64,000 bases of DNA from assembly GCA_025450195.1 (NCBI GenBank), contig JANWHW010000015.1:1-64000 (forward strand), in the 5' to 3' direction. A program made the position numbers and the translations under genes. The notes below the pieces were generated by a model, which saw nothing but the letters and a program-made list of their open reading frames with translations, was not told the origin of the DNA and ran no database searches. This DNA comes from Solirubrobacterales bacterium (lineage in GTDB: Bacteria > Actinomycetota > Thermoleophilia > Solirubrobacterales > 70-9). Below are positions 40,871 to 54,664 of the stretch, in pieces; the first letter of the stretch is position 1, and every line of letters starts with the position of its first letter.

Positions 40871-41826
40871 TCGGCCTCTTCTTCCGCCTGCCGAATCAGC
40901 CCCCGCCAGTCGGTGGTTCGGAAGACGAGCAACGTGGCAATGAAGCCGAGCACGATCGACCATGCCGACATCGCGATCTGCGTGCCAACCGAGTAGGAGA
41001 GGACAGCTGAGCGGGAGGGGCCGTGAAGCGTCGCGACAAGGAGCGCCTGCTGGGCGCCGATCCCGCCTGGCGTAAAGGGAACAACGCTCGAGATCGCCTG
41101 CACGCTCATCACCAGCATCACATTGCCGAACGAGCCGCCGATGCCGAACGCCTCGAGGAAGAACCAGAAGGCACCAAAACGACAGAGCCATCCGACCCCC
41201 TGCCAAGCGGCAACCCGACGCAGATAGCGGCGCGGCTGGGTGAGGATTGCGACGCCCTGCTTGACCTTCTCCCAGAACCTCCGCACCCGTTTCGCAAGCA
41301 GAGCTATTGCGACGACGATCGCGACCAGGAGCACCGCCGTGGTGATCGCCAATGCCTTCGGGTGGGCGGCCCAAAACGAGATCTCGAAGGCAGGCAGCTT
41401 CGGCAGGCGAGGCGGGCGGGGCAGCAGGCCTTGAGTGATCGCGTAAAGAAGGACGAGCACCCCCGCCGCGACGTCGAAGATCGTCTGCACGAGGAAGGAC
41501 GAGGTGACCGCCGGGTAAGAGGAGTTGGGGATCTGGCGCTTGACCAGGAAGACTTTGGTCACGTCACCGGCTCGCGCCGGGAGGATTGCGTTGATCCCCG
41601 CCCCCACAAGGTAGGCGCCGCTCAGCCTCAAAAACGAGATGCGAGCGTTGGGATAGGCGACGCACAACACGTTGCGCCACGCCCACGCCCGAGCCAGCTG
41701 CATCGCAGTGAGCAAGCCGAGAGCCACAGCGAAGGGCACCCAATCGATCCGGGAGAGATGTGTGAAGAACTCCCCGGTTGCGTTTCCGAACGATTCGAGG
41801 CTGGAGGCGAGGTCCGCTGGGTGCAT
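40840..41826 (-). CDS. Lysylphosphatidylglycerol synthase TM-region/UPF0104-like integral membrane protein
   Basis: RLSGAYLVGAGINAILPARAGDVTKVFLVKR ... SVVPFTPGGIGAQQALLVATL. Confidence 0.88.
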   Translation of the reverse strand: MHPADLASSLESFGNATGEFFTHLSRIDWVPFAVALGLLTAMQLARAWAWRNVLCVAYPNARISFLRLSGAYLVGAGINAILPARAGDVTKVFLVKRQIPNSSYPAVTSSFLVQTIFDVAAGVLVLLYAITQGLLPRPPRLPKLPAFEISFWAAHPKALAITTAVLLVAIVVAIALLAKRVRRFWEKVKQGVAILTQPRRYLRRVAAWQGVGWLCRFGAFWFFLEAFGIGGSFGNVMLVMSVQAISSVVPFTPGGIGAQQALLVATLHGPSRSAVLSYSVGTQIAMSAWSIVLGFIATLLVFRTTDWRGLIRQAEEEADQEKLSAKAS

Positions 41827-41910
41827 CGCAGCTACACTAGCCCGCTCTTGTCAGACGCTGAGACCATCCAGTCCGCCCATGCGGCGACGCGAGATTCCGC
41901 CGATGAGGCG

Positions 41911-42837
41911 ATGTGCGCGCGAGCCCGCGAGCGCTACACCGGCGACCGCAAAAGCAGCTTCCGCCGCCGAAGAAAGCGCCACGCCCAGCTGCCCAATCTG
42001 ATCATCGTCGGCGGCCTGAAGTGCGGCACCACCAGCATCCACCACTACCTCGGCCTGCATCCGGAGATCCAGATGTCGAAGCCGAAGGAGCTCAACTTCT
42101 TCGTCGAGGAGCTGAACTGGGACCTCGGCCTCAACTGGTACGCGAGCCGCTTCGACGACCGCTTCAAGGTGCGTGGCGAGTCCTCGCCTCACTACACCAA
42201 CCTGCCCCGCTTCACCGGCGTGCCCGAGCGCATCCAAGAGCACTGTCCCGATGCGAGGCTGCTCTACATGGCGCGCGACCCGATCAAGCGCATCCTCTCG
42301 CACTGGGTGCACGCTACCGGCGCCGGCTATGAGACCCGCGAGCTGACGCCAACCCTGTCAGCGCCCGACTCCTCCTACATCCAGCGCTCGCTGTATTGGA
42401 TGCAGCTCCAACCCTATTTGGAGCTGTTCGACCGCTCGCAGATCGAAGTCATTACCCAGGAGGAGCTGCAGTCAGAACGCGAGGAGACGATGCGAAGGGC
42501 CTTCCGCTTCGCGGGGGTCGACGAGGGCTTTACCTCCGAGCAGTTCGACCGCGAGTGGGAGAAGTCGAGCGCCAAGCAGGGTGACAAATACCAGCTGATG
42601 GAGAAGCTGGTCAGGCTGCCTGGCCTCCGCTCCTTCGACCGCAACTTCGACCGACTGCCAGAGTCGCTGCGCTGGCTCGTCGAGAAGGTCGTCCACGACC
42701 CTGAGAAGCCACCGGCGCCAAAGCCGGAGCTTCCCGATGACCTCTTCGAGACGATCCGCAGCCACTTCGGCGATGATGTCGCCTCACTTCAGCAGTTTGT
42801 TGGCCGCGAGTTCGCCGGCTGGCATGATTACCGATGA
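41911..42837 (+). CDS. Sulfotransferase family protein
   Basis: NLIIVGGLKCGTTSIHHYLGLHPEIQMSKPKELNFF (5'-PSB loop) and ARLLYMARDPIKRILSHWVH (3'-PB). Confidence 0.92.
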   Translation: MCARARERYTGDRKSSFRRRRKRHAQLPNLIIVGGLKCGTTSIHHYLGLHPEIQMSKPKELNFFVEELNWDLGLNWYASRFDDRFKVRGESSPHYTNLPRFTGVPERIQEHCPDARLLYMARDPIKRILSHWVHATGAGYETRELTPTLSAPDSSYIQRSLYWMQLQPYLELFDRSQIEVITQEELQSEREETMRRAFRFAGVDEGFTSEQFDREWEKSSAKQGDKYQLMEKLVRLPGLRSFDRNFDRLPESLRWLVEKVVHDPEKPPAPKPELPDDLFETIRSHFGDDVASLQQFVGREFAGWHDYR

Positions 42838-44339
42838 GTATGGGCCCAGGGGAGAGACAGCCGATGCGCAAGCGCGCCCGCCGCCGCTTGGCCATTGTCG
42901 CGTTTTTCGCGATCGCCATGCTGCCGGCGCTGGATGCAGGCGCCGCCGGCGCCTCGACCACGACCTACCTGCGGCCCAACGCCGACATTTCCTCGTCCGG
43001 GTCCTGGGCCGTGGTCGGCGCGGGGACGGCGTGGGAAGCGCTGGCCGACAACGTGACCGAGGCACAGGTGCCTTCCAGCTCCGGCTACATAGCCTCCAGC
43101 GGAGCCGCGGGCCAGACCACGGTCGGCCTGAAAACGATGTCGCTGGCGGGAGCCACCGCGGTTCAGATGACCGCCTGGGTGTACACGGCCAACGCTAACG
43201 AAGCGATCGTCGATGTATTCAAATCAAGCGCGGGGGGCAGCGTTGCAAAAGCTTCCATAACCAGCCCTGGTTGGAACCCCATCCCCCTTGAAGAACCCCT
43301 GAAACAGCCCGAACTCGACACTGCGGTGCTGAAGATCAGATCTCTGCTGTCACAGCCCCAACAGGTGAAGGCGGCATTCCTCGCGGTCACCTACACCCCG
43401 TCTCCGCCGAAGGTGTACTGGGGCTCATGGATCGACGGTGATGTCTACGGGAGCAGCGGCGACGCACCCTGGACCAGCTCGACCTGGGACCTCTTCGAGG
43501 CCCATGCCGGCAGGGCGCCTTCGATCGTGCACTTCGGCCAGCCCGCACCGTGGACCCAGGCCTTCGCCGCCAAACCGCTCGAACTGACCAGGACGCGGGG
43601 CGCCATCCCGCTGGTAGACATGGGAAGCAACGGAGCCAGCCTTGCCGAAATCGCCAGCGGGGCGAAGGACTCCTACCTCATCAGCTGGGCAAGCGCGGTT
43701 CGGAGCTATGGGAAGCCGTTCTTCCTGCGCTGGGACTGGGAGATGAACGGCACCTGGTTCCAATGGGGGAAAGAAGCCGCTACGGACCCTGCCCAGTACA
43801 AAAGCGCCTGGCGTCATTTTCATGACATCGTGGAAGCCAAGGGCGCCACCAACGTAACGTGGGTGTGGTGCCCAAACGTGAGGTTCACAGGCAGCACCTC
43901 GCTGCCCTCGCTGTACCCAGGTGCGGAATACGTCGACTGGACTTGCGCCGATGGCTACAACCGCGGGACCAATCCGCTCAAGCCGAGTAGCTGGACCAAG
44001 CTCTACCCCTTGTTCTTGTCCACCTACAACGCATTGCTGAGCCTGGCGCCGGAAAAGCCGATCATGATCGGCGAGATGAGCTCAACCGAGTACGGCGGCT
44101 CGAAGGCGTCGTGGATCGCCGATGCGTTCTCGACCCAGCTGTCGGTCAAGTTCCCGAAGATCAAGGCAGTGAACTGGTTCAACTGGAACATCGCCAAGGA
44201 CGGGGGTCGCTGGGACTGGCCAATTGAGTCCTCAGAATCCGCTCAGGCGGCCTTCTCCAACGTGATCTCGTCGCCCTATTACGCAGGAAACACCTTTGGG
44301 GGCCTGCCAAGCCTGACGCGCATCCAGCCGCTGCCGTGA
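42834..44339 (+). CDS. Secreted GH26-like glycoside hydrolase with N-terminal beta-domain
   Basis: Signal peptide RLAIVAFFAIAMLPALDAGAAGA; FFLRWDWEMNGTWFQWGKEA and KPIMIGEMSSTEYGGSKASWI. Start overlaps the sulfotransferase stop. Confidence 0.82.
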   Translation: MSMGPGERQPMRKRARRRLAIVAFFAIAMLPALDAGAAGASTTTYLRPNADISSSGSWAVVGAGTAWEALADNVTEAQVPSSSGYIASSGAAGQTTVGLKTMSLAGATAVQMTAWVYTANANEAIVDVFKSSAGGSVAKASITSPGWNPIPLEEPLKQPELDTAVLKIRSLLSQPQQVKAAFLAVTYTPSPPKVYWGSWIDGDVYGSSGDAPWTSSTWDLFEAHAGRAPSIVHFGQPAPWTQAFAAKPLELTRTRGAIPLVDMGSNGASLAEIASGAKDSYLISWASAVRSYGKPFFLRWDWEMNGTWFQWGKEAATDPAQYKSAWRHFHDIVEAKGATNVTWVWCPNVRFTGSTSLPSLYPGAEYVDWTCADGYNRGTNPLKPSSWTKLYPLFLSTYNALLSLAPEKPIMIGEMSSTEYGGSKASWIADAFSTQLSVKFPKIKAVNWFNWNIAKDGGRWDWPIESSESAQAAFSNVISSPYYAGNTFGGLPSLTRIQPLP

Positions 44340-44384
44340 TCGCATAAGGCGAGCAACCCCGGCGGACGCGGTTACGCTGCGACG

Positions 44385-45116
44385 ATGCGCCGTCTGATCC
44401 CCGACCTCAGCGAGACCACGGTCGGGCAGCAGCTCGACTCATACCGGCCGTGGGAGTGTGCCCATGAGGATCGGCCCTACCTCGCGATGAACTTCGTCGC
44501 CACCGTGGACGGGCGGGCGACGATCGGCGGCGTCTCGGGGCCGATTGGATCGGATGCCGATACGGCGATGCTGGTCGGCCTGCGAACCCGCTTCGATGCG
44601 GTGATGATCGGCGCCGGGACGATGCGCGCCGAGCGCTACGGACGGCCCGTGGCCGACCAGGCGGTTCGCGAGAGCCGGGAGCGGAGCGGCCTCCCGCCCG
44701 ACCCGTTGATGGTGATCGTCAGCGGCCGCCTGGACCTGCCCTGGGACGCGCCGCTCTTCACCGAAGGCGCCGGGCAGGTGCTCGTCTTCACCGCCTCTGA
44801 GGTCGAGCCGCCAGACACAGCGACCTCGCTGCGGGTCGTACACCACGAAGACGACGTCGATCTCATCGCGGCATTGCGTCACCTGCGCCACGAGCACGGC
44901 GTACGCGCCGTCCTTTGCGAGGGGGGGCCGCACCTCTTCGCCGAGCTCCAGGGCCTCGGCCTCGTCGACGAGCTGTTCCTGACGACCGCGCCGAAGCTGG
45001 CCGGCGGCGGTGCCCCTCGCATCCTCGAGGGAGAGCTGCCGGCGGCGGGCGAGCTTGAGCTTGCCTGGCTGCTGGAGCAAGACGGCGAATTGTTCGCCCG
45101 TTACCGCCGACCCTGA
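44385..45116 (+). CDS. RibD C-terminal/dihydrofolate reductase-like pyrimidine reductase
   Basis: RPYLAMNFVATVDGRATIGG, DAVMIGAGTMRAERYGRP, VLCEGGPHLFAELQGLGLVDELFLTTAPKLAGG. Confidence 0.88.
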   Translation: MRRLIPDLSETTVGQQLDSYRPWECAHEDRPYLAMNFVATVDGRATIGGVSGPIGSDADTAMLVGLRTRFDAVMIGAGTMRAERYGRPVADQAVRESRERSGLPPDPLMVIVSGRLDLPWDAPLFTEGAGQVLVFTASEVEPPDTATSLRVVHHEDDVDLIAALRHLRHEHGVRAVLCEGGPHLFAELQGLGLVDELFLTTAPKLAGGGAPRILEGELPAAGELELAWLLEQDGELFARYRRP

Positions 45117-45173
45117 GCGGCGCCGGCCCGCTAGCGTTGCGGCGACCCAGACCCGAAGAGAGGACCGAGCCCG

Positions 45174-46436
45174 ATGGACTTCAAGCCCAGCCCCGCGGTC
45201 GAGACGTTGCGCGAGCGCATCCTCGACTTCATGGACGAGCACATCTACCCGCAGGAGCGGGAGATCATGGAGGCGCTCGACGCGGAGGTAGCTCCCGGCG
45301 TCCCCTACCCGAAGATCCTGGTCGAGATCCGCGAGCGTGCCCGGTCGGAGGGCCTCTGGAACCTCTTCATGCCCGACGAGCGCTTCGGCCCCGGGCTCAC
45401 CAACTGGGAGTACGGGCTGCTCTGCGAGGAGATGGGGCGAAGCCCGGCAGCAGCGCCAATGGCCTTCAACTGTTCGGCGCCGGACACCGGCAACATGGAG
45501 ATCCTTGCGGAGCATGGCAGCGACGAGCAGCGCGAGCGCTGGCTGGAGCCGCTGCTGGAGGGACGAATCCGCTCCTGCTTCTCGATGACCGAGCCCGAGG
45601 TCTCGGGCTCAGACCCGACCCTGCTCCAGGCGCGAGCGGTGCTCGACGGCGATGAGTGGGTGCTCGACGGCCACAAGTGGTTCACCTCCGGCGCGGTCGG
45701 GGCCGATCTGGCGATCGCAATGGTCGTCACCGACCCTGAGGCCAATCCCTATGCCCGCGCGTCAATGATCTGCGTCCCAACCGATACGCCCGGCTTCAAC
45801 CTCGTCCGGCCGATTCCGGTGATGGGGCACGCTGCCGGGCCCGGCCACTGCGAGATTCGCTACGAAGAATGTCGCGTGCCCGCCTCCAACCTGCTCGGTG
45901 GGCAGGGGATGGGCTTCGTCGTCGCCCAAGACCGGCTAGGCCCCGGCCGCATCCACCACTGCATGCGGGCGATCGGCACCGCCGAGCGAGCCCTGGAGAT
46001 GATGTGCCGCCGCGCCAACGAGCGAGAAGCGTTCGGCGGGCCGCTCGGCGAGAAGCAGTTCGTCCAGGAGGCGATCGCCGCCTCGCGGATGGAGATCGAC
46101 CAGGCGCGCCTGTTGACGCTGTATGCGGCGTGGAAGATGGACACCGAGGGCAAGCGCGCCGCCCGCCAGTCGATCTCGGCTATCAAGATCGTCGCCGCCA
46201 ACATCGTGATGAACGTCCTCGACCGGGCGATCCAGGTGCATGGCAGCCTCGGCATGACCGACGACACCCCGCTGGCCGCGCTGTGGCGCTTCAGCCGCAT
46301 GCTGCGCCTCGCCGACGGCCCCGACGAGGTCCACAAGATGGTCCTCGCCCGCCGCGAGCTGAACCGTTGGGCAAAGCGCGCCGAGGCCGCGGCGGCCGGG
46401 GAACTCGAGCCGAAGCACGCCACGCGGATGGTTTGA
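45174..46436 (+). CDS. Acyl-CoA dehydrogenase family protein
   Basis: CFSMTEPEVSGSDPTLLQARAVLDGDEWVLDGHKWFTSGA, QVHGSLGMTDDTPLAALWRFSRMLRLADGPDEVHKMVLARRELNRW. Confidence 0.95.
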   Translation: MDFKPSPAVETLRERILDFMDEHIYPQEREIMEALDAEVAPGVPYPKILVEIRERARSEGLWNLFMPDERFGPGLTNWEYGLLCEEMGRSPAAAPMAFNCSAPDTGNMEILAEHGSDEQRERWLEPLLEGRIRSCFSMTEPEVSGSDPTLLQARAVLDGDEWVLDGHKWFTSGAVGADLAIAMVVTDPEANPYARASMICVPTDTPGFNLVRPIPVMGHAAGPGHCEIRYEECRVPASNLLGGQGMGFVVAQDRLGPGRIHHCMRAIGTAERALEMMCRRANEREAFGGPLGEKQFVQEAIAASRMEIDQARLLTLYAAWKMDTEGKRAARQSISAIKIVAANIVMNVLDRAIQVHGSLGMTDDTPLAALWRFSRMLRLADGPDEVHKMVLARRELNRWAKRAEAAAAGELEPKHATRMV

Positions 46437-46475
46437 AAAAGAGGCCAGGCCACACCTCAGCCTGGCCTCTTTTTC
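46434..46475. terminator. Perfect-stem bidirectional terminator hairpin
   Basis: gaaaaagaggccaggc-cacacctca-gcctggcctctttttc. Confidence 0.88.
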
Positions 46476-46490
46476 GAGAACTACTCGGTT

Positions 46491-47186
46491 CTAGCCGGCG
46501 ATAGCGAAACCGCCGACGAAGCATTCGGCCTGCGCCGAGGTCCCTGGGAACACCGGTTCAACTTCGGGATCAACGTCCCGAATCTCGACCGTGACATTGG
46601 TTCCACCTGGTTGGTTGTAGCTGAGGCTGTAGATGTCGGTGAAGGTCCCCTGGTCATGACCGTCATCTGCATCGAAAGTCTCGCCCGGGTTGAAGTCTTC
46701 ATCTACGTCGTAGTCATGATCCTGGGGGGTAAAGAAGTCAATCCAGGCATGGGCCACAGAAGTCGTAGCCTCGAGCTGGACGCTTCCCCCTTCCGCGCAG
46801 AGCGCAGTGATCGTCAGCCCACCGAGGCTGAGGATCGTCTGCGTGCCTGGCCCTTCATTGGCGGTGTAGAAGATCTTCGCTACCTGATCCGACTTCGCCG
46901 CGCTGTTAGCCCTATTCGCGCTGGGCACGGTGCCAAGGGTGCCTAGGTCGACATCGGCGCCGGTCAGAGAGCCGTCTTTGACCTTGGAGCCATTAACCGC
47001 GTTGTTCTTTATCTTCGCCGTCGTCACCGCGTTCTTCTTGATCTTGCTGGCGGTGACCGCGTTGGCTTTCAGCTGGTTGGTGCCGATCTTGCTCGCCGCG
47101 ATTGCCGTGGCACCGCCGAGCACCATAAACACGGCGATCGAAGACATCACGTTGGCGTAGGTAATCCGTTTGCGTATCTGCTTCAC
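46491..47186 (-). CDS. Repetitive stalk-head surface protein 1
   Basis: MKQIRKRITYANVMSSIAVFMVLGGATAIAA anchor/signal; QLKANAVTASKIKKNAVTTAKIKNNAVNGSKVKDG repeats; LGTVPSANRANSA linker; unique C-terminal domain. Confidence 0.85.
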   Translation of the reverse strand: MKQIRKRITYANVMSSIAVFMVLGGATAIAASKIGTNQLKANAVTASKIKKNAVTTAKIKNNAVNGSKVKDGSLTGADVDLGTLGTVPSANRANSAAKSDQVAKIFYTANEGPGTQTILSLGGLTITALCAEGGSVQLEATTSVAHAWIDFFTPQDHDYDVDEDFNPGETFDADDGHDQGTFTDIYSLSYNQPGGTNVTVEIRDVDPEVEPVFPGTSAQAECFVGGFAIAG

Positions 47187-47280
47187 AGAGCGATCTCCTT
47201 AGTGAGGGAAGGCGTTCGGGAACAATTCAGAGATGGCGTTCGGGCACAACCCTGAGATCCCTGCACTCTGCCGAGATCCA

Positions 47281-47354
47281 CCGTTGGGCAAAGCGCGCCG
47301 AGGCCGCAGCGGGCCGAAGACTCGAGCCGAAGCACGCCACGCGGATGGTCTGAA
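47281..47354 (+). pseudogene. Duplicated 3'-end remnant of the acyl-CoA dehydrogenase gene
   Basis: ccgttgggcaaagcgcgccgaggccgcagcggg...catgcc-like match to 46364-46437 (about 67/74 nt); still reads RWAKRAEAAAGRRLEPKHATRMV-stop. Confidence 0.88.
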
Positions 47355-47377
47355 CCCGGCCCAATTCTCAGAGACGC

Positions 47378-47404
47378 AGAGAGGGCGGCCAATGGCCGCC
47401 CTCT
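47378..47404. terminator. Hairpin following the dehydrogenase remnant
   Basis: gagagggcggcca-atggccgccctctc palindrome between remnant and stalk-head gene 2. Confidence 0.72.
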
Positions 47405-47429
47405 CGCAAAACACGTAGATGCAGACCGG

Positions 47430-48092
47430 CTAGCCGATCGCGTTAACGATGCCGCCAATCACACAGCCGGCGTTGCCATAGTTCAAGCCGAGAGCGATCC
47501 CCTCGGAGTTGGAGGTGAGCATCTTGCCGTCGGGACCGATCACGAAACCGAAGTCGATATCGCTTTCGACGTCTGTAACACCACTCGTCGCCGTGTTGCT
47601 GACAAATACACGGTCTTCTTCAAGCGTGGTGGTGTTGAGGAAATCTCCTCCTTCGCCATCGAAGCTGTCGTCGCCTTCGGCTACAGCACCATTCTGTGTC
47701 GTCGCCATCAGGATCCTGGCGCGATCGAGGCCTTCTTTCTGGTCACATACCGCGATTAGAGAAACCGAGCCATTGCTGGCAATCGTCTGAGTGCCACCAA
47801 AGCCGAGCCGGATGAAGAAGGGGGTCTGGCCGGCCAGATTCGAAGCGGTGGTCGCGCTGGGAACCGTGCCGAGAGTCGCCTCGTTCACCTTGGCACCGTT
47901 CACAGCGTTGTTCTTGATCTTTGCCGTCGTCACCGCGTTCTTCTTGATCTTGCCGGTGGTGACCGCGTTGGCCTTTAGCTGCTTGGTGCCGATCTTCTTC
48001 GCGGCGATCGCCGTGGCGCCCCCGAGCACGAGAAATACCGCGATCGATGACATCACGTTGGCGTAGGTGATTCTCTTGCGTATCTGCTTCAC
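47430..48092 (-). CDS. Repetitive stalk-head surface protein 2 (tandem paralogue of protein 1)
   Basis: MKQIRKRITYANVMSSIAVFLVLGGATAIAAKKIGTKQLKANAVTTGKIKKNAVTTAKIKNNAVNGAKV, then LGTVPSATTASNLAGQTPFFIRLGFGG and a different C-terminal domain. Confidence 0.85.
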   Translation of the reverse strand: MKQIRKRITYANVMSSIAVFLVLGGATAIAAKKIGTKQLKANAVTTGKIKKNAVTTAKIKNNAVNGAKVNEATLGTVPSATTASNLAGQTPFFIRLGFGGTQTIASNGSVSLIAVCDQKEGLDRARILMATTQNGAVAEGDDSFDGEGGDFLNTTTLEEDRVFVSNTATSGVTDVESDIDFGFVIGPDGKMLTSNSEGIALGLNYGNAGCVIGGIVNAIG

Positions 48093-48257
48093 AGGCCGAT
48101 CTCCTTAGGTAGGGGGAACGAGCACGGGCACGCTGACAGCCCTGCACTCCATTGCTGAGACTCCAAGACCCTTGCAAGCCGATGGTGGGGTTGTCAAGGC
48201 AATTGGACGCGTCAAGCCGCCGTGATGACCATTGGCCATAACGCAACAAGCGGGAAC

Positions 48258-49457
48258 CTACATGCGTGAGCGGCGGCTTGATCGAAGCACCTCTTTGAAC
48301 GACCTGTACTTCAATCGCATCAACGGACGCTCGATCAGGTAATAGCTGGCCGCGGCCAACGGGATCGCGATAACGACCGTCCCGATCAGCACCGTCGCGA
48401 ACCCTTCATTCGCTCCACCGAAGCCGAGGTCGATCCCGATCGTCACCTGCCAGAGGTAGAAGCCGTAGGAGATCAGTCCCAGCCAAAGCAGGGGGCGGTT
48501 GGCGAGAATTCGACGGGGTACTCCGACGTTGGGATTTCCGAACACGACTGGAATAACGAGCAGAATCGCAATCCCGCACTGAAGAAGATGAATCGCAAGG
48601 AATTCCAGGTCTGTGAAATCTGCAACCGTGAAGGGAATGGGTTTGAAGGCGATGACCGTTACGAAGTACAAACCCAGGGCCCCAGCCCAGCACATGCCCG
48701 GATTGGATGCGGCGACGCGAAGCGGGCGGGGGAGTGTGGGCTCCTGCCTTCCATAGACAGCCGACAGAACGGCCAGCGCAAGCCCCATGCCAAGCCAGTC
48801 GAAGTGAGCGGCGAAGGTGTAGGTGAACCAGGATTTCTCCCGGAGCGACGATAAGTCGAGCGCCAGCGAGGCAAGGGCCAGTAAAGCGATCAGGACGAGC
48901 TCGACACGAAGCCATGAGCGCACGGTGCGGCCTCGGGCAAGCCATGCCGTTAGCGCCGCATAAATTGGCAGGATTGCGTAGAACGTCAGCTCGACGGTGA
49001 GGGTCCAGGACTGGAGCAATCCACAGCGGAAGCCCTGTCCTTCGCAGGCTGCCGTGTCAGTAACGGGGTGAAGATACTCCGTGAGGCTGTAAAAAACCCA
49101 CCACTTGTCGCTGAAGACCCCGGTCAGCCCGAAAACGATGGTGAGGCAGGTGAGGGCGACCCAGTAGGCGGGGTAGATTCGGAGGAAGCGGCGGCGTGCG
49201 AAATCCCTGACCCGGGGCGCAGCCGGGCCCCCAGCACGGTACGCGATCATTGGTCGGTAGAGGAGGAAGGCGGAGAGGAGGAAGAAGATCGCCACCATCG
49301 AGTCGAGCCTGACCACCATGCGATCCGTCAGGCCCGCACCGCTACCGAAGCTACCGGCGAACAGCCAGCTGTGAACCACGACCACGCCGATCGCCGCAAT
49401 GCCCCGCACTCCGTCAGAGAGCGGAAACCGCGGATGGCGCGGGGGCGGGGCAACCAC
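48258..49457 (-). CDS. Acyltransferase family 3 membrane protein (O-acyltransferase)
   Basis: DGVRGIAAIGVVVVHSW, RRFLRIYPAYWVAL, 10+ TM helices, LIERPLMRLKYRSFKE. Confidence 0.92.
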   Translation of the reverse strand: MVAPPPRHPRFPLSDGVRGIAAIGVVVVHSWLFAGSFGSGAGLTDRMVVRLDSMVAIFFLLSAFLLYRPMIAYRAGGPAAPRVRDFARRRFLRIYPAYWVALTCLTIVFGLTGVFSDKWWVFYSLTEYLHPVTDTAACEGQGFRCGLLQSWTLTVELTFYAILPIYAALTAWLARGRTVRSWLRVELVLIALLALASLALDLSSLREKSWFTYTFAAHFDWLGMGLALAVLSAVYGRQEPTLPRPLRVAASNPGMCWAGALGLYFVTVIAFKPIPFTVADFTDLEFLAIHLLQCGIAILLVIPVVFGNPNVGVPRRILANRPLLWLGLISYGFYLWQVTIGIDLGFGGANEGFATVLIGTVVIAIPLAAASYYLIERPLMRLKYRSFKEVLRSSRRSRM

Positions 49458-49501
49458 GTCGGGAACCGCCGCCCGCCCGCCGTCCGGGTTGACCCCTTGT
49501 C

Positions 49502-50071
49502 CTACGCTGAGCCTCCCAGTGCGCGGGTGAAGTACACACTGCAGGCACGGAGACCGAACCGGCGCGCGGCGGCACTTTGCTCGTTTCCGAGGCCGGAGAT
49601 CATCAGCTCGAGGCTGTGTGCTCGCTCAGGTTCATCTGCCGTTCCGGCCCGCAAGCGCTCGCGAGCTAGCGCGATGATCGGGTCGAACAAGCCCAGGTAG
49701 ACCTTAAGCGCTCGCGAGTTCGGTGCCGGCCCAAGCCCCCTCAGGTCGCTTGCCTGGCGGCTCAGGATTTCGATTCCCGGCTTGACGAGACCGATGGTGA
49801 TTGCTTCCTGTGCAGAACTAGACCGCGAAAAGACCTGAGGAAGCTTACGGCCTAGGGCGCGGGTGTCTCGAGTACTCCGGCTGCAGATGGCTTCTGCCCG
49901 CTTGAGGTACTGGGTCCTGTCGACACGGGGAGCAGACCGATGCGCGCTGCGCCCACTTGCGTCCGAGGCAGTTCTGGGGCTCGTTTCATTGGAGCCACCG
50001 CAGCCACTAAAGGCTGCGGTGGCGATCACGGCTATCAACGACAACCACGGAATGTCAGCGCGATAGTCCAT
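49502..50071 (-). CDS. Putative lipoprotein, hypothetical
   Basis: MDYRADIPWLSLIAVIATAAFSGCGGSNE lipobox. Confidence 0.7.
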   Translation of the reverse strand: MDYRADIPWLSLIAVIATAAFSGCGGSNETSPRTASDASGRSAHRSAPRVDRTQYLKRAEAICSRSTRDTRALGRKLPQVFSRSSSAQEAITIGLVKPGIEILSRQASDLRGLGPAPNSRALKVYLGLFDPIIALARERLRAGTADEPERAHSLELMISGLGNEQSAAARRFGLRACSVYFTRALGGSA

Positions 50072-50168
50072 GTGTCCGCCACAGGCGAGGCGGGGGCTCA
50101 AAAACGACGGGCGCCATCCCTAAAGGAGGCGCCCGTCCTCTGCCGGTTGCAGCGGTTCGACCTTACCC

Positions 50169-50738
50169 TTACTCCGCGCAGACGACCGAGACCCTGACGC
50201 TCCACGTGTTGGCGCCACCAGGAATCCGCTCCAGGCTTGTCAGCCACGCGTCTCCGTAGGAGTTGTTGAAAGTCGGGACAACTTCGTTGGCGCCCACGCC
50301 GGTGACTTCAAAGCCGCCCCCCGTAACCTGGCTACCCGCGGGGCAAGTGGTCAGACCGAAGCCCGATCCCGCGTTCGGGCCTTCCGTAGTGCCAAACTCC
50401 GTGGAGGTGCTGCCGAACTTGGAGTTAGCCGTCGCTTGGGCGGCTTCGGCTGCTGATTTTGCAGAGTTTGCGGTGCTCTGTGCGATGTTGGCCGCGCTTT
50501 GCGCCGAGTTTGCCGTGCTCTGTGCGGTGTTAGCGGCTGTTTTCGCCGAGTTTGCCGTGCTCTGTGCGGTGTTAGCGGTGCTCAGCGCGGTGTTGGCCTT
50601 TTTCAGCGCTTTGTTAGCCGTGCTTTTGACACTGGCGGAGATGGACGCGATGGGGTTCGTCGGTCCGCCGAGAGCAGGGACGGCCAGGGCAAGAGCCAAG
50701 ACTGAACTCAAAAGCAGGACTGCGTAACGACTCTTCAT
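50169..50738 (-). CDS. Secreted heptad-repeat (TAQSTANSA) coiled-coil protein with C-terminal globular domain
   Basis: MKSRYAVLLLSSVLALALAVPALGG signal; SVKSTANKALKKANTALSTANTAQSTANSAKTAANTAQSTANSAQSAANIAQSTANSAKSAAEAAQATANSK; two Cys in the C-terminal domain. Confidence 0.8.
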   Translation of the reverse strand: MKSRYAVLLLSSVLALALAVPALGGPTNPIASISASVKSTANKALKKANTALSTANTAQSTANSAKTAANTAQSTANSAQSAANIAQSTANSAKSAAEAAQATANSKFGSTSTEFGTTEGPNAGSGFGLTTCPAGSQVTGGGFEVTGVGANEVVPTFNNSYGDAWLTSLERIPGGANTWSVRVSVVCAE

Positions 50739-50832
50739 GTTGCCTCCTGGCGCCACCGTGCGGACGCTGTTGCCTGTAGGGGGGACGCTATTCCACCACA
50801 GCCCGACGGGGAGTGCAAGCTTGCCTATGGAC

Positions 50833-51471
50833 TCAAGGACGATCGACGCCCACGAGCCCGACCCCGACGTCAGAGCAGTGCGTGAGCCCAAGACCCTCAA
50901 TCGCCTGGTCGACCTGAACGCCAGCGTCGTCTACCAGCTGAGCCTTGACAGCGATCTGGGCAGGGCTTCCGCTGCGCGCGACTCGAGCCAAGGCTCCCGC
51001 CCTGATAAGGACGTCGAGGAGAGCTGAATCGAGCGACCTGACTGCCTCGGCGTGGGTCAAGGGCACGGGCGACTGCCGGAGACTCATGCGCCATTCCTCA
51101 ACGATCGAGACAAGGGCCGCAGAGAACTGCTCGACATTTAGCCGCTGCTGCACCTTTTGCTGCTCCAGAGTCGAGATCCTCCCCTTTTCTTCCACGCAGC
51201 TTCGATCCACCGCCTGCGTAAAGGAATCTTCGGTGATCCCATCTTCGCTGGGCTGCAGAGCCAGGAAGGCGCCTACGGCAACCACAATGGCCCCGGCCGT
51301 TGCAGCACTAAGCAAGCGTGCGCGACGGGTGGTGCCGATCAGACGCGCGATCCGCTCGCGCAATGGAATCCCAGTGGCAGCTACCACGCCTGACCGCGAC
51401 AGTTCTGAGCCACAGCCTACGCAATAGCGGTTCTCCTCCTGGTTCTTCTCGCCACAATGAGGGCAGTACAT
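50833..51471 (-). CDS. Zinc-ribbon membrane-anchored hypothetical protein
   Basis: MYCPHCGEKNQEENRYCVGCGSEL double-zinc-ribbon half, one TM LLSAATAGAIVVAVGAFLAL. Confidence 0.78.
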   Translation of the reverse strand: MYCPHCGEKNQEENRYCVGCGSELSRSGVVAATGIPLRERIARLIGTTRRARLLSAATAGAIVVAVGAFLALQPSEDGITEDSFTQAVDRSCVEEKGRISTLEQQKVQQRLNVEQFSAALVSIVEEWRMSLRQSPVPLTHAEAVRSLDSALLDVLIRAGALARVARSGSPAQIAVKAQLVDDAGVQVDQAIEGLGLTHCSDVGVGLVGVDRP

Positions 51472-51543
51472 GAGGGAGCCAAGCTACCCGATCATGGGTG
51501 GGACGAATGGCTGCGATCTATCGCCGCGGAAACGTCACTAGGA

Positions 51544-52254
51544 CTAGTTGTAGAGCACCACGTAGAAGGCGGCGGGTTTCGCCATGGTGTTGAGCTTGAA
51601 CGTCTGCACTTCAACCGCCGGAGCCGGGCAAGAGACTCCGGCGATCTTGATGTGCGCGATCGTCTCTTCGTAGGTGGGCTCAACCTGCGGCGTCACCTGG
51701 CCTCCCTTGGGGTTGAACCCCGGGACTTTGATGCAGTAGACGTTTCCTTTCCCAGGAGTGCTGACGTCGGCGCTTGTGATGCCCTTGGAGTTTGAGGAGT
51801 CGACGCTTCCATCTTGGTTGACCTCGGCGAAGATGACCGGGTTCGCCGATTCAGCCGTTTTGGCGGAGTTAGATTTGTTCGCGCTGGGGACCTCGCCCAT
51901 CGATGACTCGACGATCTTGTCGCCGGTGACTGTGTCGTTGGCGATCTTCTCGCCGGTGACGGCTCCATCGGCGAGCTTGTCGCGGGCAACAGCCCCGGTG
52001 CCGAGCTTGTTGACCGTTACCGCGCCGTTCGCGAGCTTGCCGCCCTTCACCGCCAGAGCCTTGATCTTCGGCGCAATCACCGCATTCTTGCGCAGCTTGC
52101 TGGCGGTCACGGCGCCCGGCCTCAGCTGTCTCTCCCCCACCGACTTGTCCGCGATCTGCTGCGCCGCGTAGGTGGTGGCACCGCCGACCGCGATGAACAG
52201 CGCAATCGAGGAGACCACGTTTGCGTACGTCAGCCGCTTGCGAACCTGCCCCAC
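51544..52254 (-). CDS. Repetitive stalk-head surface protein 3
   Basis: MGQVRKRLTYANVVSSIALFIAVGGATTYAA; RQLRPGAVTASKLRKNAVIAPKIKALAVKGGKLANGAVTVNKLGTGAVARDKLADGAVTGEKI; GEVPSANKSNSAKTAESA linker. Confidence 0.85.
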   Translation of the reverse strand: MGQVRKRLTYANVVSSIALFIAVGGATTYAAQQIADKSVGERQLRPGAVTASKLRKNAVIAPKIKALAVKGGKLANGAVTVNKLGTGAVARDKLADGAVTGEKIANDTVTGDKIVESSMGEVPSANKSNSAKTAESANPVIFAEVNQDGSVDSSNSKGITSADVSTPGKGNVYCIKVPGFNPKGGQVTPQVEPTYEETIAHIKIAGVSCPAPAVEVQTFKLNTMAKPAAFYVVLYN

Positions 52255-52296
52255 AACATCCTCCCTCGCTCCCTTTAAGAAACCCGGCGGGTCATC

Positions 52297-53361
52297 TTAG
52301 TAGCGTCGCTCGGCCTCGTCGGCGGCCTCCGCGAGGCTCTCGACGATCCGGGCGAACTGCTGGATCCCCTCATCCACCTTCCCGTACTGACCCGCCGAGT
52401 AGCGGGCGAGCACGCCCTCGAGGATGATTGCCAGCTTCCAGTAGCCGAGCGCGACGTAGAAATCGAGCTGGGAGAGGTCGCGGCCGGAGCGCTCGGCGTA
52501 GCGCTGCCTGAGCTCATCCCGGTGCGGGAAGCCCGGGGCCAGGTTCGCCGGCTGCCCGAGCGTGGTCCCCTCATCGCCCTCCTGTGGCCAGTAGACCATC
52601 AAGAGGCCGACGTCGGCGAGCGGATCGCCGAGCGTGCAGAGCTCCCAGTCGACCACCGCGGCCACCTCCCCCATCGGGGTCAGGATCATGTTGTCGAGCC
52701 GGTAGTCGCCATGGACGATCGTCGCCGGCCCCTGCTCGGGAATACGGGCTGCGAGCCGCTCGTGGATCTCGTCGATCACAGGGAGCTCCCTGGTCTTCGA
52801 CTTCTCCCACTGCCCCTGCCAGCGGTGCAGTTGGCGAGCAACGTAGTCCTCCTTGCGCCCCAACTCACCGAGGCCAGCGGCGTCGGGATCGACAGCATGG
52901 ATCTCGACCAGGGTGTCGACAACCCGCTCGCCGATTGCCCGTCTGTCGTCGTGGTCGGGGAAGATCTCGGCATCGGGGAGGAAGCGGAGGATCGGGCCCT
53001 CGACGAACTCCATCACGTAGAAGGGCGCGTCGTTGACGGCCTCGTCCTCGCAAAGGCCGACCACCGGAGCAACGGGGACGGGCGTGGCGGAGAGCGCCGA
53101 AACGACCCTGTGCTCGCGACCCATGTCGTGGGCGGAGCCAAGCCGCTTGCCCAGTGGCGGTCGCCGCAGCGCCCAGCGGCCACTGCCGGAGTCCCCCACG
53201 CCGTAGGTCAGGTTGGAATGACCTCCGGAAATCCGCTCGAAGGAGAGCGGCAACTCGACCGTCGGGACATGCTCGGCGAACCAGGACTCCACACCAGTCC
53301 GGTCGATCCCCTCCGGCACCTCGCCGCTACCGTCGACAGTCCCTGTAGCCTCGTCGCTCAT
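52297..53361 (-). CDS. Phosphotransferase family protein (APH/ACAD10-11-like kinase fold)
   Basis: FERISGGHSNLTYGV, TIVHGDYRLDNMILTPMGEVAAVVDWELCTLGDPLADVGLLMVYW. Confidence 0.93.
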   Translation of the reverse strand: MSDEATGTVDGSGEVPEGIDRTGVESWFAEHVPTVELPLSFERISGGHSNLTYGVGDSGSGRWALRRPPLGKRLGSAHDMGREHRVVSALSATPVPVAPVVGLCEDEAVNDAPFYVMEFVEGPILRFLPDAEIFPDHDDRRAIGERVVDTLVEIHAVDPDAAGLGELGRKEDYVARQLHRWQGQWEKSKTRELPVIDEIHERLAARIPEQGPATIVHGDYRLDNMILTPMGEVAAVVDWELCTLGDPLADVGLLMVYWPQEGDEGTTLGQPANLAPGFPHRDELRQRYAERSGRDLSQLDFYVALGYWKLAIILEGVLARYSAGQYGKVDEGIQQFARIVESLAEAADEAERRY

Positions 53362-53395
53362 AGCCTCGCAAGCATATTCACGACCACGCTTTCGG

Positions 53396-54664
53396 TTGAG
53401 CTCGTCGCTCGCCAACAGGCTCACGATCGGCTTCGCGATCGCGTTTGCCGTCTTGACAGGCCTCGCGGTGATCGGGGTTGCCCGCTTCCTCCAGCAGCGT
53501 CAGGACTTCGAGGACGCGACCGCCCGCTCCTACCAGCATGAGATTGAGGCCCGCAATCGGCTGGCGCAGGGACAGAGGCCCGCCAGCGCCCGCGTGGCGA
53601 TCGTCGCCGAGGCACAGAGCAGACAGGTGCTCCGCGAGGAAATCGCCGATGAGACCAGGGACACGGCGCTGCTCGTCGGAGCGGGGTTGATAGCCGGCCT
53701 CACCGGCGCCGCGCTGCTATTTAGCGGCCTGATCTCCTCGATGCGCCGTCCCCTGGAGGAGCTCGTCGAGGCATCGGGCAAGCTCGCGAGCGGCAACCTC
53801 GAGGCCAGGGTCAAGATCGGCGGCCTGTCCGAGACGGCGGCGCTGGGAAAGGCATTCAACGAAATGGCCGAGGAGATCCAGCGCCGGGCCGGAGAACGAG
53901 ACCGCCTGGACCAGATGAAGGACGAGTTCGTCCTCACCGCCTCACACGAGCTGCGCAGCCCACTTACGTCCGTCCAGGGCTTTGCCGAGCTGTTGATGCT
54001 GGAGCGCGAAAAGCTCAGCCCGAAGCAGGCCGAGACCGTCGAGATCATCCTCGACAGCACTCGCCACCTGGTCCATCTCCTCAATGACCTACTCGACCTC
54101 GCTCGCAGCAATGCAGGCAGGCTCGCGATCAAGCCGGTCCCAACCGAGGTCGAGTCGCTGGTCGAAGACGCCGTGAGGACGATGCGCAGTCAGACCGAAG
54201 CGCGTAACCAGCTGCTGAGCGACGAGGTTGAGCCTGACCTGCCCCGTGTCAGCGCCGATCGCGACCGGATTCGCCAAGTACTGGTGAATCTGCTTACTAA
54301 CGCAAATGAGTACTGCCCGCAAGGAGCGGCCATATGCGTGAAAGCCAGGCGCATTGGTGCTGAAGTGGAGATCGCTGTGATTGATGACGGGCCAGGAATT
54401 CCAGCGGAGCAATTGGAGCAGATCTTCGATCGCTTCACGCGCGGCGATGCCGGACTGACCCAGCGGGTCGGGGGCACCGGCCTGGGCTTGGCAATCTCGA
54501 AATCTCTGGTCGAGCTGCACGGCGGGACCATCTCCGCCGAGTCTCGTCCGGGTGACGGCTCCGAGTTCCGAATGCGCCTTCCCTCCATCGCCAAGAATCC
54601 GGTTGGCGCAGATGGAAACGGAGCTGAGATACCCAGCTACTCCGACGAGTCGGAGGTCAGGTGA
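53396..54664 (+). CDS. Membrane sensor histidine kinase (HAMP-HisKA-HATPase)
   Basis: FVLTASHELRSPLTSVQGFAELL, VLVNLLTNANEYCP, DDGPGIPAEQLEQIFDRFTRGD, GGTGLGLAISKSLVELHGG. Confidence 0.95.
   Translation: MSSSLANRLTIGFAIAFAVLTGLAVIGVARFLQQRQDFEDATARSYQHEIEARNRLAQGQRPASARVAIVAEAQSRQVLREEIADETRDTALLVGAGLIAGLTGAALLFSGLISSMRRPLEELVEASGKLASGNLEARVKIGGLSETAALGKAFNEMAEEIQRRAGERDRLDQMKDEFVLTASHELRSPLTSVQGFAELLMLEREKLSPKQAETVEIILDSTRHLVHLLNDLLDLARSNAGRLAIKPVPTEVESLVEDAVRTMRSQTEARNQLLSDEVEPDLPRVSADRDRIRQVLVNLLTNANEYCPQGAAICVKARRIGAEVEIAVIDDGPGIPAEQLEQIFDRFTRGDAGLTQRVGGTGLGLAISKSLVELHGGTISAESRPGDGSEFRMRLPSIAKNPVGADGNGAEIPSYSDESEVR

What the first reader, a model, noticed from the sequence alone, without database searches (positions are those of the whole stretch)
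46491..52254. Cluster of modular 'stalk-head' surface proteins with conserved anchors and divergent tips
Three proteins share RKRxTYANVxSSIAxFxxxGGATxxAA, then 10-residue repeats of the type (K)xxxNAVTxxKI, then a GTVPSA/GEVPSA Ala/Ser/Asn linker, and then unrelated C-terminal domains, two of which end near a Cys-containing motif. The repeats resemble AVTTAKI-type repeats in phage and bacterial trimeric fibres (inference from established families). Conserved stalk plus variable head, together with tandem duplication, suggests a diversifying adhesin or recognition set.
Basis: partly seen in the sequence, partly recalled or inferred. Interest (0 to 1): 0.75.

Follow-up and report, generated by a model that had tools for sequence, protein, structure and literature searches.

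The report
Exported stalk proteins with exchangeable heads
A soil-type actinobacterium and most of its order carry many unnamed exported proteins built from one conserved export signal, a repetitive stalk and one of dozens of different tip domains, and at one fixed chromosome site both the number and the tips of these genes change from species to species, probably because tips are exchanged between copies.

Summary
Three genes share a conserved N-terminus, 10-residue AVTxxKI repeats, a G(T/E)VPSA linker and dissimilar C-terminal domains. A fourth stalk-head gene (50169-50738, alanine-zipper stalk) was missed. The family is unnamed in Pfam and NCBIfam. It has 7 members in this genome, occurs in 23 of 25 sampled genomes of the order, and is rare outside the class. 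In 154 sampled members the N-terminus precedes AVTxxKI or collagen stalks and 67 BLAST-level head clusters, nearly all without a known domain. One head family sits on three stalk types.

The genes lie between convergent acyl-CoA dehydrogenase and APH-kinase genes. In most relatives that junction is empty. In two genera it holds 1-4 cassettes with different heads.

P0001 and P0002 are a tandem duplication: a copy of the dehydrogenase 3' end lies between them. Their 5' halves are 85% identical but their heads are unalignable; P0001's head instead matches another genus. This indicates exchange of heads (or of 5' ends). Where orthologues share one head, it is as conserved as the stalk (omega 0.4-0.6).

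The 'anchor' looks like a Sec signal sequence. Adhesin function, trimerisation and surface retention are inferred, not shown.

The parts
46491..47186 (-). P0001: signal sequence (about residues 1-31), basic AVTxxKI stalk, GTVPSA linker, acidic head with two Cys
   Evidence: head homologous to G012B in the same syntenic place
47430..48092 (-). P0002: same 5' half as P0001 (85% DNA identity), different head with two Cys
   Evidence: head relatives in other families of the order
51544..52254 (-). P0003: signal sequence, longer AVTxxKI stalk, GEVPSA linker, third head type
50169..50738 (-). P0004: signal peptide, alanine-zipper stalk (STANTAQ repeats), head of the family's largest head cluster
   Evidence: Pfam PF11839 E 1.3e-7; head relatives on collagen and AVTxxKI stalks; no full-length relative in 49 other genomes of the family
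47272..47354 (+). Truncated copy of the dehydrogenase 3' end between P0001 and P0002: footprint of a tandem duplication
   Evidence: 83 nt, 88% identical to 46355-46437, E 1e-24
46967..47208 (-). 5' module of P0001 (ribosome-binding site, signal sequence, stalk), duplicated at 47871-48114
   Evidence: 85% over 244 nt; sisters in the 5' tree, support 95/94
45174..46436 (+). Acyl-CoA dehydrogenase, left flank of the variable interval
   Evidence: 82-94% identical in genera g1 and g11
52297..53424 (-). APH-family phosphotransferase, right flank of the variable interval
   Evidence: PF01636 E 7e-50; position conserved across the family
48258..51471 (-). Other cargo of the interval in this genome: acyltransferase (48258-49457), possible lipoprotein (49502-50101), P0004, zinc-ribbon protein (50833-51471)
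   Evidence: PF01757 E 7e-17, PF13240 E 5e-7; tblastn with these proteins gave no hit in the fetched syntenic loci

Best explanation
These are exported fibre-like proteins made as self-contained cassettes: a conserved Sec-type signal, an extended stalk of basic 10-residue repeats, a linker, and a small Cys-paired head that is displayed outside the cell and probably binds something (glycan, polymer, other cells or phage). Cassettes collect at the junction of two convergent housekeeping genes, multiply by local tandem duplication, and diversify because recombination between the conserved 5' ends of cassettes exchanges whole heads. Shown from sequence: family, architecture, distribution, locus variability, the duplication footprint and the 5'/3' incongruence. 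Inferred: export, display, oligomeric stalk and binding function.
For: N-terminal motif with signal-sequence shape in 154 members. Paired Cys: 97 of 154 have exactly two, and 354 of 390 Cys lie in heads. Stalk shared with phage tail fibres. Stalk types interchange behind the same head family: the largest cluster has 18 collagen and 18 non-collagen members, and P0004 carries that head on an alanine zipper. One member ends in Peptidase_S74, the chaperone of trimeric fibres. Locus: empty junction in most genera, 1-4 cassettes with different heads in g1 and g11. Dehydrogenase-tail copy between P0001 and P0002. 5' tree joins P0001 with P0002 and rejects P0001 with G012B (p-AU 0.004), whereas P0001's head matches G012B (z 46) and not P0002.
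Against: No experiment. No usable structure. No wall-anchoring motif, so retention at the surface is unexplained. The 5' alignment is short (200 nt), so the incongruence rests on few sites. P0001 and P0002 heads share one short motif and could be very remote homologues. Orthologous heads show no positive selection.
Confidence: 0.6

Rival explanations
1. Exported structural or cell-wall matrix proteins with no recognition role: basic stalks bind anionic wall polymers and the heads are packing domains that vary with little consequence.
For: Stalks are basic and heads acidic (median +7.1 and -3.4 net charges per 100 residues in 93 members without collagen). No known binding domain in heads.
Against: Orthologous heads are under purifying selection (omega 0.4-0.6). 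Presence of dozens of distinct folded-looking heads with paired Cys is easier to explain by binding.
Confidence: 0.2
2. No head exchange: P0001 and P0002 heads descend from one duplicated head that diverged very fast, while gene conversion kept the 5' ends alike.
For: A 17-residue motif and a Cys near the C-terminus are shared; gene conversion would also give the 5' tree.
Against: P0002's head type has clear relatives in other families of the order, so it is older than the duplication. No DNA-level head similarity.
Confidence: 0.15
3. Remains of a prophage or tailocin: the proteins are tail fibres.
For: Stalk similarity to tail fibres.
Against: Signal sequence on every member; flanks are housekeeping genes conserved across genera; no relative found in viral contigs.
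Confidence: 0.03
4. Heads are varied by a diversity-generating retroelement.
For: A conserved N-terminal part with a variable C-terminal tip is the usual target layout (general knowledge).
Against: No reverse transcriptase in this genome (91% complete), G001, G012, G444 or G446. Heads differ as whole domains, not at scattered positions.
Confidence: 0.02

Closest known systems
Fibrillar adhesins / FA-like proteins (PMC8286594, PMC9210967)
   Same: Exported stalk that projects a terminal domain; fast change of tips; poor coverage by domain libraries.
   Different: Known ones have recognised stalk and adhesive domains and usually a wall anchor. Here the head is C-terminal, no anchor motif is found, and the proteins are small (about 190-270 residues).
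Phage tail fibres with AVTxxKI-type stalks (PHROG phrog_892 and others)
   Same: Stalk repeats match by profile (E 4e-12).
   Different: Cellular genes with a signal sequence, in no phage context.
Bacterial collagen-like surface proteins (Scl, Lcl, BclA)
   Same: Some family members use collagen stalks with C-terminal heads.
   Different: Different N-terminus; collagen is only one of the interchangeable stalks, and P0001-P0003 have none.
YSIRK-G/S signal peptides of staphylococcal surface proteins (PMC11898559)
   Same: A conserved motif inside the signal sequence shared by otherwise different surface proteins.
   Different: Different motif and lineage; any trafficking role is untested.
Trimeric autotransporter adhesins
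   Same: Stalk-head plan; one relative (L044:12589-14703) has YadA-head-like repeats by eye and Peptidase_S74.
   Different: Head at the C-terminus, no C-terminal beta-barrel anchor.

Membership tests
Fibrillar adhesin | Repetitive stalk | tested here: met
   10-residue repeats
Fibrillar adhesin | Known adhesive domain | tested here: not met
   No Pfam or NCBIfam adhesive domain in P0001-P0003; heads of 75 representatives nearly all unrecognised
Fibrillar adhesin | Cell-surface anchoring | tested here: inconclusive
   Signal-like N-terminus; one LPXTG match in 154 members; cleavage not testable
Fibrillar adhesin | Binds a ligand or surface | not testable with these tools
   needs experiment
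Phage tail fibre | Fibre-type stalk repeats | tested here: met
Phage tail fibre | Phage or prophage context | tested here: not met
Trimeric autotransporter adhesin | C-terminal YadA-type membrane anchor | tested here: not met
   no such domain
Trimeric autotransporter adhesin | Homotrimer | not testable with these tools
   only single-chain prediction was available; models poor
Collagen-like surface protein | Gly-X-Y repeats | tested here: not met
   absent from P0001-P0003; present in 55 of 154 relatives
Diversity-generating retroelement target | Associated reverse transcriptase | tested here: not met
   none in G000, G001, G012, G444, G446

The most novel reading that the evidence does not exclude
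A dedicated, order-wide recognition repertoire: a lineage-specific export signal delivers stalks whose heads are shuffled as cassettes at hotspots, giving each strain its own set of surface tips (kin or neighbour recognition, or phage-receptor variation), with dozens of undescribed binding folds.
Probability: 0.2. Interest if true: 0.78.

Novelty: new variant of a known kind. Interest (0 to 1): 0.55.

Why it matters
A large, unnamed exported protein family in a widespread but poorly studied lineage carries dozens of undescribed head domains. It offers a clean natural record (empty site, duplicated gene tail, mismatched 5' and 3' histories) of how bacteria may change the tips of surface fibres by swapping whole domains. 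It also gives a conserved N-terminal motif by which such proteins can be found in genomes where annotation sees nothing.

Tried and rejected
AlphaFold of P0003 alone (pLDDT 35) and of P0001 with two homologues (pLDDT 46; head predicted all-beta, 9 strands) was too poor, and Foldseek gave no match at E below 0.001. By eye some heads in relatives looked like C-type lectin (L006, L022, L015) or C1q (L031, L123), but Pfam did not support either, so no such claim is made. An iterated search with P0003's head was contaminated by stalk sequence and was redone on trimmed heads. Positive selection on heads was tested on one orthologous trio and not found; synonymous sites are near saturation in the more distant pairs. 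Prophage origin and retroelement diversification were rejected. No Rfam RNA in 44000-54000; terminator and promoter scans were no better than shuffles. Literature searches for stalk or collagen-like proteins in Solirubrobacter or Thermoleophilia found nothing relevant.

Full report
Setting. The window is contig C15 of a 2.18 Mb, 91% complete genome. Named near relatives found by sequence are uncultivated Actinobacteria and Solirubrobacterales metagenome bins, so I place it in that order (class Thermoleophilia); this placement is an inference.

Observation. Repeat periodicity at lag 10 is well above shuffled stalks. The heads show no mutual similarity by profile comparison.

Family. No Pfam or NCBIfam model covers P0001-P0003. 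The stalk matches phage tail-fibre profiles and 88 phage records, but a scan of viral contigs found no relative. With a profile of the N-terminal region the genome has 7 members. In a 397-genome phylum sample, 23 of 25 genomes of the order have matches (up to 14 per genome), as do 15 more genomes of the class and only 10 elsewhere. Genomes without a match are not all listed, so the class denominator is unknown (at least 33).

Modularity. I assembled 154 members. Fifty-five have collagen-like stalks, the rest mainly AVTxxKI-type repeats, and a few have almost no stalk, so the N-terminus is separable from the stalk. BLAST groups the heads into 67 clusters; that is an upper bound, since profile searches merge some. 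The largest head cluster (36) is split 18:18 between collagen and non-collagen stalks, and P0004 puts the same head on an alanine zipper. Of 75 representatives, Pfam recognises almost only the collagen stalk, one pentapeptide head and one Peptidase_S74. The N-terminal motif runs roughly R.R[LP][TS][YP]ANV..S.ALF.ALGG..AYAA, with Ala at 98% at the likely cleavage position. This fits a Sec signal; a non-cleaved signal anchor cannot be excluded. Ninety-seven of 154 members have exactly two Cys, and 354 of 390 Cys lie in heads, which fits disulphides outside the cytoplasm.

Locus. The three genes sit between convergent acyl-CoA dehydrogenase and APH-family genes, part of a conserved run (RibD, dehydrogenase, [interval], APH, histidine kinase, response regulator) found in genera g1 and g11. 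I located both flanks in the 50-genome family sample. In many genera the junction is 24-156 bp, and in two g11 genomes 89 and 213 bp (empty). In g1 and g11 it holds 1-4 stalk-head cassettes: G000 (P0001, P0002, P0003, P0004 plus other cargo), G001 (3), G002 (at least 1), G012 (2), G023 (2), G441, G443 and G444 (1 each, same head), G438 (1, another head) and G446 (1, collagen stalk, opposite strand). G445 holds an unrelated secreted-looking protein and G021 another ORF, so the junction is a general insertion site. In g1 and g11 the dehydrogenase and APH proteins are 68-94% identical to the window's while the heads differ as whole domains.

How heads changed. An 83-nt copy of the dehydrogenase 3' end (88% identical) lies between P0001 and P0002; this marks a tandem duplication of dehydrogenase-tail plus cassette. 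The two copies keep 85% DNA identity from 22 nt upstream of the start through the stalk, yet their heads do not align at the DNA level. In a tree of the 5' 200 nt, P0001 and P0002 are sisters (95/94), and grouping P0001 with its positional counterpart G012B is rejected (p-AU 0.004). P0001's head, however, is clearly homologous to G012B's (z 46) and not to P0002's (z 3.8 over one short motif). P0002's head type occurs in other families of the order. The simplest history is duplication followed by replacement of P0002's head; gene conversion of the 5' ends is the main alternative. Where a head is shared by orthologues (G441, G443, G444) it is as conserved as the stalk and under purifying selection. 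A second, apparently independent copy of the dehydrogenase tail occurs in G446, and in G002 a 99-nt repeat overlapping the APH 3' end lies beyond the cassette.

Interpretation. The best-supported model is an exported, fibre-like display protein family with exchangeable heads. Export, oligomerisation, retention and binding are inferences. No reverse transcriptase is present in this genome, so retroelement diversification is unlikely, and the surroundings speak against a prophage. Structure prediction was uninformative.

Novelty. The architecture class (stalk plus variable tip) is known, for example fibrillar adhesins (PMC9210967), collagen-like adhesins and phage fibres. I found no description of this signal-stalk-head family, its order-wide spread, its interchangeable stalks, or the dehydrogenase-APH hotspot; only open-licence papers were searched.

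Noticed in passing
window 46000-52000: G+C drops to 61-62% across the interval against 64-70% elsewhere, consistent with acquired or fast-changing DNA.
   Followed up: partly
L044:12589-14703: A family relative in G013 carries, behind the same N-terminus, YadA-head-like repeats (by eye), a Peptidase_S74 chaperone domain and a C-terminal hydrophobic segment.
   Followed up: partly
L045:4215-4880: The conserved N-terminus directly joined to an NlpC/P60-like domain (weak, E 0.024) without a stalk: the signal may be used by other exported proteins too.
   Followed up: no
L144:645-5329: Three tandem relatives in G291, each with a collagen stalk and an unusual repeat head (about 40 residues per unit, Cys-pair per unit; 15 Cys each).
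   Followed up: no
window 50833-51471: Small protein with an N-terminal zinc ribbon, one hydrophobic segment and an unknown C-terminal part, inserted in the interval only in this genome among those compared.
   Followed up: no
window 42834-44339: Exported glycoside hydrolase family 26 protein next to a sulfotransferase (41023-42837), just outside the variable interval.
   Followed up: no
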